A stretch of 40,421 nt of DNA, taken from positions 1-40,421 of the forward strand of contig JAFTUL010000018.1 of the NCBI GenBank assembly GCA_017466275.1, read 5' to 3'. The DNA comes from Clostridia bacterium (GTDB lineage Bacteria > Bacillota > Clostridia > UMGS1883). Within the stretch, counting starts at the first letter, position 1. Each line of letters starts with the position of its first letter. Under the pieces are notes generated by a model. The model was given only the letters and a program-made list of their open reading frames with translations. It did not search any database and had not been told where the DNA came from. The position numbers and the translations under genes are program-made. Shown in pieces: positions 15,329-20,358 of this stretch.

Positions 15329-16477
15329 ATGAACATTAAAATACATAGAGGCCAAAACCAAATAGGCGGATCAATAATTGAAGCATCAAGCAAACAAGCA
15401 CGAGTGTTCTTCGACATTGGGATTGAATTAGATGAGGATAAAGAAATTGAAATACCACAAATTGAGGGTTTGTTTTACGGAAGCCAAAATTGTGATGCTG
15501 TTTTTATTTCTCATTATCATTCAGATCACATAGGACTGGCAGATTATTTGCTTCCTGACATACCTGTTTATATTGGCGAGAAAGCCTATAAGGTAATGAA
15601 AGCAGCATCAGATTATAGAGATATTGAAGTCAAGTTTGACCCTATTCTTATAGAAAACGAGAAAATAATAGAGATTAAAGACATCAAGATAACTCCTATT
15701 TTATGCGACCATTCTGCTTTTGACTCGTATATGTTTTTAATAGAAGCAAATGGAGAAACAACTTTATACACGGGTGATTTTAGAGCAAATGGAAGAATGG
15801 ACTTTGACAAATTATTAGAGAAAGTTCCTTGTGTAGATAATTTAATCATTGAGGGAACAACACTTTCTCGTGAGGATTCTATTGAAAATATAGAAGAAGA
15901 AAAATTAGAAGAAATAGCAGTTGAATTTTTAAATAAGTATAAAGGCCCTGTGTTTATTATGATGTCTGCAATGAATATAGATAGAGTTATAACAGTAAAG
16001 AATATTGCAGAAAGAACAGACAGGATATTTTTAGAGGATATTTATACTGCTGATATTACGTCAGCAATAGGAATGACAACAGCAAATACCAGAGTATTTA
16101 TGACAGGCGGAGACAAGCAGTATAAATAGTTACAAAAGTATTCTGATAGTAAGATAGGTAAAAATGAAATTGCAAGAACGCCTTTTGTTATGTGTGTTAG
16201 AAGTTCAATGAAGAACTATTTATCAAAATTGAATGAATTGGTATCGTTTGAAAATGGAGTGTTATTTTATGGTATGTGGAAAGGTTATTTAGAAAAACCA
16301 CAGACAAAAGAGTTTATTGAGTTTATGGAAAGCAAAGGCGTAAAGACTCATATATTGCATACAAGTGGTCATGCCGATAGTATGACAATAGATAAACTTA
16401 TAGAAGACGTAAAACCAAAAAGGATTATCCCTGTTCATACGGAAAATGCTGAATGGTTTGACAGATACAAGGTTTAA
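15329..16477 (+). pseudogene. Metallo-beta-lactamase-fold hydrolase (RNase J-like ends), interrupted by in-frame TAG
   Basis: The frame encodes about 382 residues. The first part has the zinc motif H-Y-H-S-D-H (residues about 64-69), then CDHSAF and TGDFRA, the usual MBL fold ligands. The C-terminal part has HTSGHAD and IPVHTENAEWF, which match the beta-CASP/RNase J end motifs, so a nuclease of that group is likely. A TAG at 16127-16129 splits the frame after GGDKQYK; the following codons (LQKYSDSKIGKNEIARTPFVM) continue the domain without a frame change. Both parts are needed for zinc binding, so the truncated product should be inactive unless the stop is read through. Codon use is AT-rich, as in the two genes upstream. 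Confidence 0.7.
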
Positions 16478-16654: not shown

Positions 16655-16846
16655 TTGAAAGGATTAAAACAAATCAGAAAAGAACGTCGTTTGACACAGT
16701 TAAAGGTTGCTATGGATTTGAATATTTCACGTGAAGCCCTTTCTCATTATGAAAACGGCAAGCGTGAGCCGAGTATTGATATGCTTGTCCAAATGTCAGA
16801 ATACTTCAATGTTTCCATTGATTTTCTCATAAAAGGAGACAGATAA
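16655..16846 (+). CDS. XRE family helix-turn-helix regulator
   Basis: A 63-residue protein that is essentially one Cro/CI-type HTH: LKQIRKERRLTQLKVAMDLNISREALSHYENGKREPSIDML, then the usual LVQMSEYFNVSIDFLIKG dimerisation end. The TTG at 16655 is placed 7 bases after AGAGGTG (16643-16648); an in-frame GTG at 16646 lies within that site and is unlikely. It lies between the AT-rich cassette (and rlmD-like remnant) and the Mn-riboswitch block. It may control the cassette or belong to the same mobile segment; it could also be a host gene, since its composition is less AT-rich. Confidence 0.85.
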   Translation: MKGLKQIRKERRLTQLKVAMDLNISREALSHYENGKREPSIDMLVQMSEYFNVSIDFLIKGDR

Positions 16847-16852
16847 TTTATC

Positions 16853-16881
16853 TTGACAAAAGCTTCCCCTTATGTTAAAAT
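16853..16881 (+). promoter_or_regulatory. Promoter of exchanger gene 1
   Basis: Consensus TTGACA (16853-16858), 17 bases, TAAAAT (16876-16881). The expected transcript start lies just before the riboswitch P1 at 16889. Confidence 0.85.
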
Positions 16882-16888
16882 TTATCAA

Positions 16889-16981
16889 GATAAAAGGGAG
16901 TAGCTAACGGATTTATTCCGTTACAACGGCGTCAGTACGGCATTTTTGCCCGCTTTTGTATGAAACAGCAAGACTTTTATC
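16889..16981 (+). ncRNA. yybP-ykoY (Mn2+) riboswitch, copy 1
   Basis: Conserved aptamer elements in order: GGGAGTAGC, P2 hairpin (TAACGG.../CCGTTA), CGTCAGTACGG, and GCAAGAC. P1 is GATAAAAG (16889-16896) with CTTTTATC (16974-16981). This aptamer family senses Mn2+ and usually turns its gene on. Here the 3' strand of P1 is also the 5' strand of the terminator that follows, so ligand binding should prevent termination. Confidence 0.85.
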
Positions 16982-17012
16982 GCATTCTTTTTGTGCGATA
17001 AAAGTCTTTTTT
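16972..17012 (+). terminator. Riboswitch-controlled terminator, copy 1
   Basis: Perfect 13-bp stem (16972-16984 with 16994-17006), 9-base loop, then eight T. It is mutually exclusive with P1 of the aptamer. Confidence 0.88.
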
Positions 17013-17042
17013 ATTGCATAAAATAAATTCAGAGGTGCGATT

Positions 17043-17996
17043 ATGGAATATATTTTGAATTTAGTATTACTTATCAGTGGCTTTTTCTTTCTTGTAAAAG
17101 GCGCTGACCTTTTCGTTGACGGAAGCAGCTCCGTTGCGAAGATATTTAAAATTCCGTCGGTTATAATAGGTCTTACGATAGTTTCTATCGGAACATCTCT
17201 TCCCGAGGCGGCTGTAAGTATTACGTCATCGCTTCAGGGAAGCTATGACCTTTCTATCGCAAATGTCATAGGCTCCAACATATTTAATTTATTGATGGTT
17301 GTTGGATTTTCCGCACTTATCTGCCCCTTTGTTGTAGATAAGATGATTATGAAGAGAGATTTTCCTCTCTGTATAGGCATAACGGTACTTCTGGCAATTA
17401 TGCTTCGTGACAATATTCTCTCCCGCATCGAGGCAGGTGTTTTGTTTGCAATTTTTATTGCCTACATAATTATTCTGGTAATGTCCGCCCTCAAAAACCC
17501 TCTTTCTGCGGACGAGGACGACAAACCTATGCCTGTTCCCAAGAGCCTTCTTTTAATTCTTCTCGGCGGTGCAGGAATAATCCTCGGTGGAACATTCACC
17601 GTTGACAGTGCCAAGTTTTTTGCAAGTGCTTTTGGAATGAGCGAAATGCTTATCGGCCTTACGGTAGTTGCCGTGGGAACATCTCTTCCCGAGCTTGTAA
17701 CAAGCATTGTTGCAGCAAAAAAGGGTGAAAGCGAAATCGCCCTTGGCAACGTTGTGGGCTCCTGCATATTTAATATTATGTTTATTTTAGGTATGAGCGG
17801 TCTTGTGCATCCTCTCAACTGCGGAATAGAGGCTCTTATCGATGCAGTAATCCTCATTGTGATAAATATCCTTATGTATATTGTTTGTATTACAGGCAAA
17901 AAGATTAACCGTCCCGAGGGGCTTGTCTGCGTAGTAATATATGTGATATATGTTGCATATACTGTATTGAGAGCGTTTGAGATGCTGCCTTTTTAA
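17043..17996 (+). CDS. CaCA-family cation exchanger 1 (YrbG-like), probable Mn2+ exporter
   Basis: A 317-residue protein with about ten membrane helices in two inverted halves. Each half has the alpha-repeat of cation/Ca2+ exchangers: TIVSIGTSLPEAAVSI (about residues 47-62) and TVVAVGTSLPELVTSI (about 207-222), each followed by G-S-[NC]-I-F-N. The family (K+-dependent Na+/Ca2+ exchanger-like, E. coli YrbG) exports Ca2+ or a related divalent ion. A Mn2+ riboswitch directly upstream makes Mn2+ the likely physiological substrate; this is inference. AGAGGTG precedes the ATG. The promoter of its paralogue starts 4 bases past its stop codon, and no separate terminator is seen in between. Confidence 0.9.
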   Translation: MEYILNLVLLISGFFFLVKGADLFVDGSSSVAKIFKIPSVIIGLTIVSIGTSLPEAAVSITSSLQGSYDLSIANVIGSNIFNLLMVVGFSALICPFVVDKMIMKRDFPLCIGITVLLAIMLRDNILSRIEAGVLFAIFIAYIIILVMSALKNPLSADEDDKPMPVPKSLLLILLGGAGIILGGTFTVDSAKFFASAFGMSEMLIGLTVVAVGTSLPELVTSIVAAKKGESEIALGNVVGSCIFNIMFILGMSGLVHPLNCGIEALIDAVILIVINILMYIVCITGKKINRPEGLVCVVIYVIYVAYTVLRAFEMLPF

Positions 17997-17999
17997 TTG

Positions 18000-18028
18000 T
18001 TGACAAATGGTATTTTTTGTGTTAAAAT
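18000..18028 (+). promoter_or_regulatory. Promoter of exchanger gene 2
   Basis: TTGACA (18000-18005), 17 bases, TAAAAT (18023-18028): the same boxes and spacing as copy 1, starting 4 bases after the exchanger 1 stop. Confidence 0.85.
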
Positions 18029-18035
18029 TCTCTCC

Positions 18036-18133
18036 GTAAAAGGGAGTAGCTACCGAGTTTATTTAATTCGGTACAACGGCGTCAGTACGGCAAATCTATT
18101 GCCCGCCTTTGTATTAAACAGCAAGACTTTTAC
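18036..18133 (+). ncRNA. yybP-ykoY (Mn2+) riboswitch, copy 2
   Basis: Same element order as copy 1: GGGAGTAGC, P2 (ACCGA.../TCGGT), CGTCAGTACGG, GCAAGAC. P1 is GTAAAAG (18036-18042) with CTTTTAC (18127-18133). P1 and P2 sequences differ from copy 1 but keep pairing, which is covariation support for the structure. Confidence 0.85.
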
Positions 18134-18166
18134 TGCATTATATTTGTGCGGTAAAAGTCTTTTTTT
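18125..18166 (+). terminator. Riboswitch-controlled terminator, copy 2
   Basis: 13-bp stem (18125-18137 with 18147-18159, one G-U pair), then seven T. Relative to copy 1 a T-A pair has become C-G. Confidence 0.88.
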
Positions 18167-18228
18167 GTGCAAAGGGGATGCACTAAAGACTCACCACACA
18201 ATAAAAATTTTTTATGAGGTGATTTTTT

Positions 18229-19179
18229 ATGGATTACGTACTGAATTTATTTCTCCTGGTTTTTGGTTTTGCCCTTTTGATTAAGGGTGCTGACCTGTTC
18301 GTTGACGGAAGCAGCTCCGTTGCGAAACTGCTTAAGATACCCGCTGTTATAATCGGTCTTACAATCGTTTCTATCGGAACCTCTCTTCCCGAAGCGGCTG
18401 TAAGTATTTCCGCTTCAATTAAAGGGGCTTATGACCTTTCCATTGCCAATGTTGTGGGCAGTAACATTTTTAATCTTTTGAGTGTTGTAGGCGTTTCTGC
18501 TTTTATCTGCCCGTTTATTGTTGATAAGGTAATTATGAAACGGGACTTCCCCTTAAGCATTCTTTCCGCGGTAATTTTAGCTGTAATGATGCGGGACAGA
18601 ACACTTTCGGTTGTGGAAGCAACTATTCTTTTTGTTCTCTTTATAGGTTATATTCTGCTACTTGTACGCTCTGCCCTTAAGAACCGTACCGAGGGGGATG
18701 AATACAAAACTCATTCTCCCTTAAAAAGCATTATCTTTATCATAATCGGTATTGTAGGTATTGTTGCGGGCGGAACTCTTACCGTTGATGCTGCAACATT
18801 CTTTGCAAGAGCGTTTAATATGAGCGAGCTTTTAATTGGCCTTACCATTGTTGCGGTGGGAACGAGTCTTCCCGAGCTTGTAACAAGCGTTGTTGCCGCT
18901 AAAAAGGGTGAGAGTGAAATCGCCTTGGGTAACGTTATCGGCTCAAATATATTCAACATTCTCTTTATTCTTGGTATGAGCGGTATTGTTCATCCCCTTA
19001 CCTGTGATTTCGGTGCAGTTATCGATACCATCCTTCTTATAGGTATGAGTGCCCTGATGTTTTTTATCTACAAGGCAAGAAACAAGGTTTCCCGTCTCGT
19101 GGGACTCCTCGGTGTTGTTATATATGTCATCTATGTTGTATACATTATTCTAAGAGCATACGAAATGCTTCCATTCTAA
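18229..19179 (+). CDS. CaCA-family cation exchanger 2 (YrbG-like), probable Mn2+ exporter
   Basis: A 316-residue close paralogue of exchanger 1; start, alpha-repeats (TIVSIGTSLPEAAVSI and TIVAVGTSLPELVTSV) and the AYEMLPF end are almost the same, while the central loop (residues about 148-170) has diverged. It arose by duplication of the whole promoter-riboswitch-gene unit. TGAGGTG precedes the ATG. The CDF exporter starts 19 bases downstream with its own GGAGG, so both are probably read from the copy 2 riboswitch and induced together by Mn2+. Confidence 0.9.
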   Translation: MDYVLNLFLLVFGFALLIKGADLFVDGSSSVAKLLKIPAVIIGLTIVSIGTSLPEAAVSISASIKGAYDLSIANVVGSNIFNLLSVVGVSAFICPFIVDKVIMKRDFPLSILSAVILAVMMRDRTLSVVEATILFVLFIGYILLLVRSALKNRTEGDEYKTHSPLKSIIFIIIGIVGIVAGGTLTVDAATFFARAFNMSELLIGLTIVAVGTSLPELVTSVVAAKKGESEIALGNVIGSNIFNILFILGMSGIVHPLTCDFGAVIDTILLIGMSALMFFIYKARNKVSRLVGLLGVVIYVIYVVYIILRAYEMLPF

Positions 19180-19197: not shown

Positions 19198-20358
19198 ATG
19201 ATATCCCTGCTTCTTGGGCGTTTTCTTCCCGAAGATGCCGACCAAAAAACAGCCAGAACTATATACGGTTATGTCTGCGGAGGAGCAGGGATATTTTTAA
19301 ATCTGTTCCTGTTTGCGATAAAGCTTATTATAGGAATTTTCAGCTCATCTATTGCAATAACTGCCGACGCATTCAACAACTTAACAGATGCAGGCTCGTC
19401 CGTCATAAGCCTTTTCGGGTTTATTCTTTCAGGACAGAAAGCCGATAAAGAGCATCCTTTCGGACACGGCAGAATTGAGTATATTGCAGGCATTTTTATC
19501 TCCGTCGTAATTATCTATGTAGGAATAGAACTGCTTCGTTCTTCAATAGGCAAAATTATTCACCCCGGTGAATTCGTTTTTAATATTTATGTAGCTGTTG
19601 TACTTATTATTTCCATATTGGTTAAACTGTATATGGCATATTACAACCGCCGTTGCGGAAAAAAGATACAGTCCTCCGTTCTTTTTGCGGTTGCAACCGA
19701 TTCCATAAGTGATGCCATTGCGACGGGGGCAATTTTGCTGTCATCCGTGTTTATGTATTACACCCATATTCAGATAGATGGTTATGTCGGACTTCTTGTT
19801 TCTCTGCTTATTATAAAGTCAGGTGTTGATGCGGTTATAAAGACATCCTCTCCCCTGCTTGGCGGCATCCCCGACCGCGAATTTGTGAAAAGGGTTGAGG
19901 CAATTGTGCGTGAAAACCCCGAAACGGTAGGGATTCACGACCTTGTTGTTCACGATTACGGTCCCAATAAGATTTTTGTATCTCTTCATATGGAGGTTGA
20001 CGGAAGCAAGGAGATTTTCGTGCTTCACGATGCAGCAGACCTTGTGGAAAGACAGATTTCCGACGAGCTTGGGTGCGAGGCGGTTATTCATATGGACCCA
20101 ATTGATGTGAATAATCCTGTTTTGAAAGAAATTTACGCCACGCTTCAAAAAAGGCTGGATATAGTTTGTCCCGAGGGGAATGTTCACGACCTTCGTATAG
20201 TTCCGGGGCCAACTCACACTAATGTTATTTTTGATTTAATTGTCCCTGCGGAGAGGTTTTTTGCAAAGGATAAAATTTCCGCAGAATTGGAAAAATGCAT
20301 AACGGAAATTGACGAGAATTATTATGCCGTAATAACGGTGGAAACATCATATATTTAG
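19198..20358 (+). CDS. Cation diffusion facilitator, probable Mn2+ efflux (MntE-like)
   Basis: A 386-residue CDF protein: six helices, then a cytosolic C-terminal domain (from about residue 215) with an extra C-terminal extension. Helix 2 has ITADAFNNLTDAG and helix 5 has VATDSISDAIA, so the transport site reads N-x3-D and D-x3-D. Zn-type CDF proteins generally have D/H-x3-D with His in helix 5; the N-D/D-D set fits the Mn2+-exporting group. GHGRIEY follows helix 2 as usual. TTGGAGGA precedes the ATG. Position behind a Mn2+ riboswitch and an exchanger supports Mn2+ export. Fe2+ is the main alternative. Confidence 0.88.
   Translation: MISLLLGRFLPEDADQKTARTIYGYVCGGAGIFLNLFLFAIKLIIGIFSSSIAITADAFNNLTDAGSSVISLFGFILSGQKADKEHPFGHGRIEYIAGIFISVVIIYVGIELLRSSIGKIIHPGEFVFNIYVAVVLIISILVKLYMAYYNRRCGKKIQSSVLFAVATDSISDAIATGAILLSSVFMYYTHIQIDGYVGLLVSLLIIKSGVDAVIKTSSPLLGGIPDREFVKRVEAIVRENPETVGIHDLVVHDYGPNKIFVSLHMEVDGSKEIFVLHDAADLVERQISDELGCEAVIHMDPIDVNNPVLKEIYATLQKRLDIVCPEGNVHDLRIVPGPTHTNVIFDLIVPAERFFAKDKISAELEKCITEIDENYYAVITVETSYI

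What the first reader, a model, noticed from the sequence alone, without database searches (positions are those of the whole stretch)
16853..19179. Duplicated Mn2+ riboswitch-exchanger units
Two successive copies of promoter (TTGACA-17-TAAAAT), yybP-ykoY aptamer, terminator and CaCA exchanger. The riboswitch family is known to sense Mn2+; CaCA exchangers are usually called Ca2+ transporters. The arrangement argues that these exchangers export Mn2+. Diverged aptamers could give two different response thresholds.
Basis: partly seen in the sequence, partly recalled or inferred. Interest (0 to 1): 0.65.

Follow-up and report, generated by a model that had tools for sequence, protein, structure and literature searches.

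The report
Tandem metal riboswitches controlling cation exchangers
Two neighbouring RNA metal switches of the known manganese (yybP-ykoY) class each control their own sodium/calcium-exchanger-type gene, and the same pairing recurs at a third of such genes sampled in this bacterial class, so these 'calcium' exchangers may really serve manganese export, or this branch of the switch may really sense calcium.

Summary
Two complete transcription-attenuation units (promoter, compact yybP-ykoY-type aptamer, terminator, CaCA exchanger gene) stand in tandem at 16853-19179. The second runs on into a CDF metal exporter with an N-D-D-D site. Rfam does not call either aptamer: RF00080 gives no hit even at E=10. 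The best hit is RF02617 'Streptococcus sRNA 10', which looks like a riboswitch leader filed as an sRNA. Folding and compensatory changes support a three-way-junction aptamer whose P1.1 strand is shared with the terminator, with one base covarying in both helices. In 291 genomes of the same class, 35 of 99 CaCA genes carry such an aptamer upstream on the coding strand, 0 on the other strand, 0.02 expected. The tree needs at least 15 gains or losses, so recruitment was repeated.

Mn2+ is the best-supported ligand, since the metal-binding loops and the invariant adenosine are kept. It is not settled: the closest characterised relative, the S. pneumoniae mgtA leader, responds to Mn2+ and Ca2+; the exchangers keep ordinary Na+/Ca2+-exchanger ion sites. 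'Two thresholds' has no support in the binding loops, which are identical in both copies. The riboswitch class is known. CaCA as a major target is absent from the exporter list in the review I could read.

The parts
16853..16881 (+). promoter 1, TTGACA-17-TAAAAT with TG before the -10
16889..16981 (+). aptamer 1 (P1.1 16889-16896 with 16974-16981; L1 16897-16902; L3 GUCAGUAC 16931-16938, A41 equivalent at 16934)
   Evidence: RF02617 42.6 bits; fold; covariation
16970..17008 (+). terminator 1; its 5' arm is the 3' strand of P1.1
17043..17996 (+). CaCA exchanger 1, 317 aa (PF01699)
18000..18028 (+). promoter 2, TTGACA-17-TAAAAT, begins 4 nt after the CaCA 1 stop codon
18036..18133 (+). aptamer 2 (L3 GUCAGUAC 18081-18088)
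   Evidence: RF02617 33.6 bits; fold; covariation
18123..18161 (+). terminator 2; its 5' arm is the 3' strand of P1.1
18229..19179 (+). CaCA exchanger 2, 316 aa (PF01699)
19198..20358 (+). CDF cation efflux protein, 386 aa, site A residues N-D-D-D; 18 nt after CaCA 2, no leader of its own, probably the second gene of unit 2
   Evidence: kept after CaCA 2 in L021, L015, L017

Best explanation
Each leader is an ON-type, transcription-terminating metal riboswitch of the yybP-ykoY (Mn2+) class in its compact three-way-junction form. Without metal the 3' strand of P1.1 pairs into the terminator and transcription stops. When the metal joins loops L1 and L3, P1.1 forms, the terminator cannot, and the exchanger (for unit 2 also the CDF protein) is made. 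The products most likely lower excess cytosolic Mn2+, with Ca2+ as a possible second or alternative substrate. Shown here: anatomy, covariation, competing helices, conservation, statistical association. Taken from the literature on relatives: metal binding by the core and ON behaviour. Inferred: Mn2+ as the ligand in this organism, and Mn2+ as the transported ion.
For: Core L1 GGGAGUA and an 8-nt L3 GUCAGUAC matching L. lactis GUCAAUUC in length, with the Mn-binding adenosine kept; PMC6754395 describes that adenosine as invariable and its role in Mn2+ binding. Thermodynamic folding of each aptamer gives P1.1, P1.2, P2, P3, L3 and the upper stem with no constraint. In 8 leaders of the genus, 8 of 27 aptamer pairs have changes on both sides (0 of 500 shuffles reach this), and the terminator has 5 such pairs; one column (win1 U, win2 C) covaries with its P1.1 partner and its terminator partner at once. 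32 of 35 CaCA-linked aptamers share the P1.1 strand with a terminator. Reverse survey 35 of 99 same strand, 0 opposite strand, shuffles 0.02; at least 15 label changes forced on the CaCA tree. Related aptamers precede MntP, UPF0016, TerC and P-type ATPases, all listed as Mn exporter families (PMC9334652). Five of the 35 CaCA-linked aptamers have the X. oryzae-type L3 found before all MntP and UPF0016 genes in the survey. The co-transcribed CDF has N-D-D-D where the Zn/Cd pump YiiP has D-D-H-D. The genus lacks detectable TerC, UPF0016 and Ca-type P-type ATPases.
Against: RF00080 does not match. The S. pneumoniae three-way-junction relative binds Ca2+ more tightly than Mn2+ in vitro, as reported second-hand. 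Ion-site residues of the exchangers do not differ with or without the aptamer. MntP genes in relatives G299, G301, G307, G309, G311, G312 and G318 have no aptamer upstream, while CaCA genes in G307, G311, G312 and G318 do. The same L3 type also precedes OadB, Na/Pi-PhoU and CitMHS genes, whose role in Mn2+ handling is not obvious.
Confidence: 0.6

Rival explanations
1. The aptamers are dual Ca2+/Mn2+ or mainly Ca2+ sensors and the exchangers are ordinary Na+/Ca2+ exchangers under feedback control by Ca2+.
For: Closest characterised leader (S. pneumoniae mgtA, formerly CaxP) is described as Mn/Ca-sensing (PMC11434433) with tighter Ca2+ binding (PMC9495176). The L. lactis-type L3 dominates before CaCA (29 of 35) and OadB (8 of 8) but not before MntP or UPF0016 (0 of 17; Fisher p about 5e-9, not corrected for phylogeny). 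The family's MntP genes mostly lack the aptamer. Exchanger ion sites are those of NCX_Mj apart from D240 to N. PMC7266159 expects yybP variants with other divalent ligands.
Against: The same L3 type precedes TerC in other phyla, and is the type of the L. lactis riboswitch shown to sense Mn2+ (PMC6754395). Some CaCA leaders have the other L3 type. No natural Ca2+ riboswitch is known to me. The CDF partner has a Mn-like site.
Confidence: 0.25
2. The leaders are trans-acting sRNAs, as the RF02617 label says, and not riboswitches.
For: RF02617 is the best Rfam hit, and S. pyogenes SSRC10 was seen as a discrete RNA by Northern blot and RACE (PMC3675131).
Against: SSRC10 itself is listed between a hypothetical gene and SPyM3_0440 'putative calcium transporter' on the same strand. 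A terminated leader gives a discrete RNA. Family hits sit directly before metal transporter genes, and aptamer and terminator are mutually exclusive.
Confidence: 0.03
3. The two units have diverged to sense different metals or to switch at different levels.
For: Orthologous copies 1 and 2 are kept separately in several species with copy-specific linkers; G300's second leader even has a fourth helix.
Against: L1 and L3 are identical in both copies in every species seen.
Confidence: 0.12

Closest known systems
yybP-ykoY Mn2+ riboswitch, L. lactis type (PMC11087558, PMC6754395)
   Same: L1 GGGAGUA, 8-nt L3 with the Mn-binding adenosine, P1.1 switch helix overlapping a terminator, ON logic
   Different: three-way instead of four-way junction (no hairpin between P3 and P1.2); L3 positions 42 G and 44 A; not matched by RF00080; downstream gene CaCA instead of a P-type ATPase
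S. pneumoniae mgtA Mn/Ca-sensing riboswitch, three-way junction (Martin 2019, read through PMC9495176 and PMC11434433)
   Same: three-way junction and yybP-ykoY core as described there; the streptococcal-type sequence seen here (L004, GUCAUUAC) precedes a P-type ATPase
   Different: controls a P-type ATPase in single copy; the primary paper was not held and its sequence was not aligned
RF02617 SSRC10, Streptococcus sRNA 10 (PMC3675131)
   Same: best Rfam match to both leaders; same elements including the terminator
   Different: filed as an sRNA with no clan link to RF00080; window copies score 42.6 and 33.6 against a cut-off of 56
NCX_Mj (3V5U) and YrbG-type CaCA exchangers (PF01699, TIGR00367)
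   Same: full-length match, both GTSLPE repeats, T and E ion ligands conserved
   Different: position of D240 is N in both window copies, as in most CaCA of the class

Membership tests
yybP-ykoY (Mn2+) riboswitch | conserved L1 GGGAGUA opposite an AAGA-type strand, next to P1.1 | tested here: met
yybP-ykoY (Mn2+) riboswitch | L3 with the invariant Mn-binding adenosine | tested here: met
   GUCAGUAC at 16931-16938 and 18081-18088; compared with L. lactis and X. oryzae L3 given in PMC6754395
yybP-ykoY (Mn2+) riboswitch | P1.1 competes with the expression platform | tested here: met
yybP-ykoY (Mn2+) riboswitch | match to Rfam RF00080 | tested here: not met
   other likely members also fall under its cut-off, so the failure may reflect the model's reach; I file it by core motifs and say so
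yybP-ykoY (Mn2+) riboswitch | four-way junction | tested here: not met
   three-way; a three-way form is reported for S. pneumoniae mgtA, so this is a topology variant, not a defining failure
yybP-ykoY (Mn2+) riboswitch | binds Mn2+ and switches | not testable with these tools
   needs in-line probing or transcription assays
CaCA exchanger | two Na_Ca_ex repeats and the NCX ion-ligand residues | tested here: met
   (T51, E55, T213, E217 almost invariant; D240 equivalent is N)
Mn-type CDF exporter (MntE-like) | N-D-D-D site A instead of the Zn-type His | tested here: met
   alignment to YiiP; that MntE has this set is from my own knowledge
Mn-type CDF exporter (MntE-like) | NCBIfam MntE equivalog score | tested here: not met
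   91.6 bits against a cut-off of 500, so it is not filed as MntE

The most novel reading that the evidence does not exclude
The three-way-junction, L. lactis-type-L3 branch of the yybP-ykoY class, which in Clostridia precedes Na+/Ca2+ exchangers, cation P-type ATPases, Na+-pump beta subunits, Na/Pi-PhoU and CitMHS carriers, is a natural Ca2+ (or dual Ca2+/Mn2+) riboswitch with its own regulon, distinct from the Mn2+-only branch before MntP and UPF0016.
Probability: 0.2. Interest if true: 0.85.

Novelty: new member of a known kind. Interest (0 to 1): 0.5.

Why it matters
CaCA exchangers are annotated as calcium transporters almost by default. A third of those sampled in this class sit under a metal riboswitch of the manganese class, recruited many times, so either a sixth family of bacterial Mn2+ exporters is hiding in plain sight or a branch of the riboswitch senses Ca2+, for which no natural riboswitch is known to me. 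Both can be tested with short leaders and single genes. It also suggests that Rfam family RF02617 should be reclassified and that RF00080 misses many compact members.

Tried and rejected
Idea that G at L3 position 42 marks an altered-specificity subclass: dropped after L3 was aligned by strand length. Window GUCAGUAC is the L. lactis type and AACAUACU the X. oryzae type; both adenosines are in place, and the GUCAGUAC type also precedes TerC in other phyla. Idea that a change at NCX D240 marks Mn-type exchangers: N occurs in 31 of 35 aptamer-linked and 57 of 64 other CaCA. A covariance model was planned, but the mixed alignment (A2) misplaced P2 and L3 between subtypes, so patterns plus a P1.1 test were used instead. 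Weak RF02617 hits L003, L007-L010 and L012 look like terminators, not aptamers. Papers by Dambach 2015, Price 2015 and Martin 2019 were not held, so I could not check whether their supplements already list CaCA genes. No structure prediction was run: homology to NCX_Mj is clear.

Full report
What is there. Two successive units occupy 16853-19179 on the + strand: promoter TTGACA-17-TAAAAT, leader, terminator, exchanger gene. Promoters score 11 of 12 at 16853 and 18000; terminator-like hairpins of 16 pairs lie at 16970-17008 and 18123-18161. The second promoter begins 4 nt after the first gene's stop codon. Both proteins are full-length CaCA exchangers (PF01699 at 1e-65, TIGR00367 above cut-off), 68% identical. 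A CDF protein (PF01545 plus dimerisation domain) follows the second exchanger after 18 nt, with no leader of its own.

Identity of the leaders. Rfam calls nothing at gathering. With permissive thresholds RF00080 (Manganese, yybP-ykoY) gives no hit at E<=10, while RF02617 'SSRC10, Streptococcus sRNA 10' gives 42.6 and 33.6 bits against a cut-off of 56. SSRC10 was found in S. pyogenes by a screen that meant to discard cis-regulatory leaders; it was detected by Northern blot and lies directly before SPyM3_0440, 'putative calcium transporter', on the same strand (PMC3675131). The one genome hit over the RF02617 cut-off (L004) lies before a P-type ATPase. RF02617 is therefore best read as the terminated leader of a riboswitch. 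Compact aptamers scatter between RF02617 and RF00080, almost all under cut-off, and the two families share no clan.

Structure. Unconstrained folding of each aptamer gives P1.1, internal loop L1 (GGAGUA/AAGA), P1.2, hairpin P2, and P3 with internal loop L3 (GUCAGUAC/C) and an upper stem: a three-way junction. The L3 strand aligns without gaps to L. lactis GUCAAUUC, whose fourth base is the adenosine that contacts Mn2+; the other solved type, X. oryzae, reads AACAUACU (L3 residues from PMC6754395; flanking bases from my own knowledge). On eight leaders from five species of the genus, 8 of 27 aptamer pairs and 5 of 15 terminator pairs have changes on both sides, more than in shuffles or slid controls. 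Alignment column 112 (U in copy 1, C in copy 2) covaries both with its P1.1 partner and with its terminator partner, which supports two mutually exclusive helices. One sister leader (second copy of G300, L013) has an extra hairpin after P3, i.e. a four-way form.

Conservation of the arrangement. G300, G302 and G304 of the same genus have both exchangers in tandem with one or both leaders detected, and G299 at least the second; the CDF gene follows exchanger 2 wherever the locus reaches that far (G299, G302, G304). Copy-specific differences (UAUGAAACAG against UAUUAAACAG linkers, GCUUUUGU against GCCUUUGU) are shared between species, so the duplication is older than these species. L1 and L3 are identical in all of them, so the binding loops offer no reason for different thresholds.

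Is the link with exchangers general? Genes after them are mainly CaCA, P-type ATPase, Na/Pi-PhoU, OadB, CitMHS and TerC. For an unbiased count I sampled 291 genomes of the class. Forward: 105 accepted aptamers (a few are probably chance) precede P-type ATPases (43), CaCA (13, the window's two counted apart), UPF0016 (12), OadB (8), MntP (5) and others. Reverse: of 99 distinct CaCA genes, 35 have the aptamer within about 450 nt upstream on the coding strand, none on the other strand, and 100 rounds of dinucleotide shuffles give 0.02 on average. On a maximum-likelihood tree of these proteins the label changes 20 times (15 forced by well supported branches, shuffled mean 29): clustered but gained or lost repeatedly. 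In 32 of the 35 the P1.1 strand also forms the 5' arm of an intrinsic terminator, so the ON-attenuator design is general.

Mechanism. By analogy with the L. lactis switch (PMC11087558), metal-dependent docking of L1 and L3 stabilises P1.1, which prevents the terminator. Excess metal then switches on the exchanger, and in unit 2 also the CDF protein.

Which metal? For Mn2+: the binding core is intact; related aptamers precede the known Mn exporter families named in PMC9334652, a list that does not include CaCA; five of 35 CaCA-linked aptamers are of the X. oryzae type that precedes every MntP and UPF0016 gene in the survey; the CDF partner has N-D-D-D where YiiP has D-D-H-D. For Ca2+ or both: the characterised three-way-junction relative, S. 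pneumoniae mgtA, is described as Mn/Ca-sensing with tighter Ca2+ binding but stronger Mn2+ activation; L. lactis-type L3 is found before 29 of 35 CaCA and 8 of 8 OadB but 0 of 17 MntP/UPF0016 (Fisher p about 5e-9, phylogeny not removed); most full-length MntP genes fetched from the window's family have no aptamer upstream, the one with it has the X. oryzae type, and CaCA genes in four of those genomes have it. The exchangers' ion-site residues do not distinguish the two readings. The genus has no detectable TerC, UPF0016 or Ca-type P-type ATPase, and MntP in only some species (the window genome is about 61% complete), so CaCA plus CDF may be the main efflux route for either ion.

Novelty. The switch is a member of a known class in a topology already reported. 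What I could not find in the held literature is CaCA as a major target; the original papers on the class were not held, so a mention in a supplement cannot be excluded.

Noticed in passing
window 15329-16477: Metallo-beta-lactamase/RMMBL gene read in one frame but with a single in-frame stop at 16127-16129; either a nonsense mutation or an assembly error.
   Followed up: partly
window 16655-16846: Short 63-aa ORF resembling an XRE-type helix-turn-helix regulator ends just before promoter 1 (read by eye, not tested).
   Followed up: no
Rfam RF02617; L004 1501-1606: 'Streptococcus sRNA 10' looks like the terminated leader of a metal riboswitch before a P-type ATPase and seems misfiled as an sRNA.
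   Followed up: yes
L029, L042, L046, L053, L057, L077, L088 and others: GUCAGUACGG-type aptamers stand before Na+/Pi-cotransporter-PhoU proteins (PF02690, PF01895), an unexpected target for a manganese switch.
   Followed up: partly
L028, L049, L063, L068, L098, L099, L111, L115, L142, L160, L243, L255, L256, L278-L280: Aptamers of this class precede the beta subunit of the Na+-pumping oxaloacetate decarboxylase family (PF03977), all with L. lactis-type L3.
   Followed up: partly
L027, L030, L040, L047, L084, L108, L113, L117, L141: Aptamers precede CitMHS/ArsB-like permeases (PF03600).
   Followed up: partly
L087, L107, L144, L171, L208; L031, L048, L070, L076, L097; L035, L094, L227: Aptamers near or before membrane-protease and SPFH genes: M48 peptidase (Selenomonas, G478), Zn_peptidase_2 (Thermus), Band_7 proteins, which hints at membrane protein quality control under metal stress.
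   Followed up: no
L146, L147, L259, L261, L264, L265; L236-L241: Aptamers precede an ABC transporter ATP-binding gene in several families, and a lipoprotein-like gene in one family.
   Followed up: no
L013 about 2656-2790 (G300, second leader): A sister leader in the same genus carries an extra hairpin after P3, a four-way-junction form of the same switch.
   Followed up: partly
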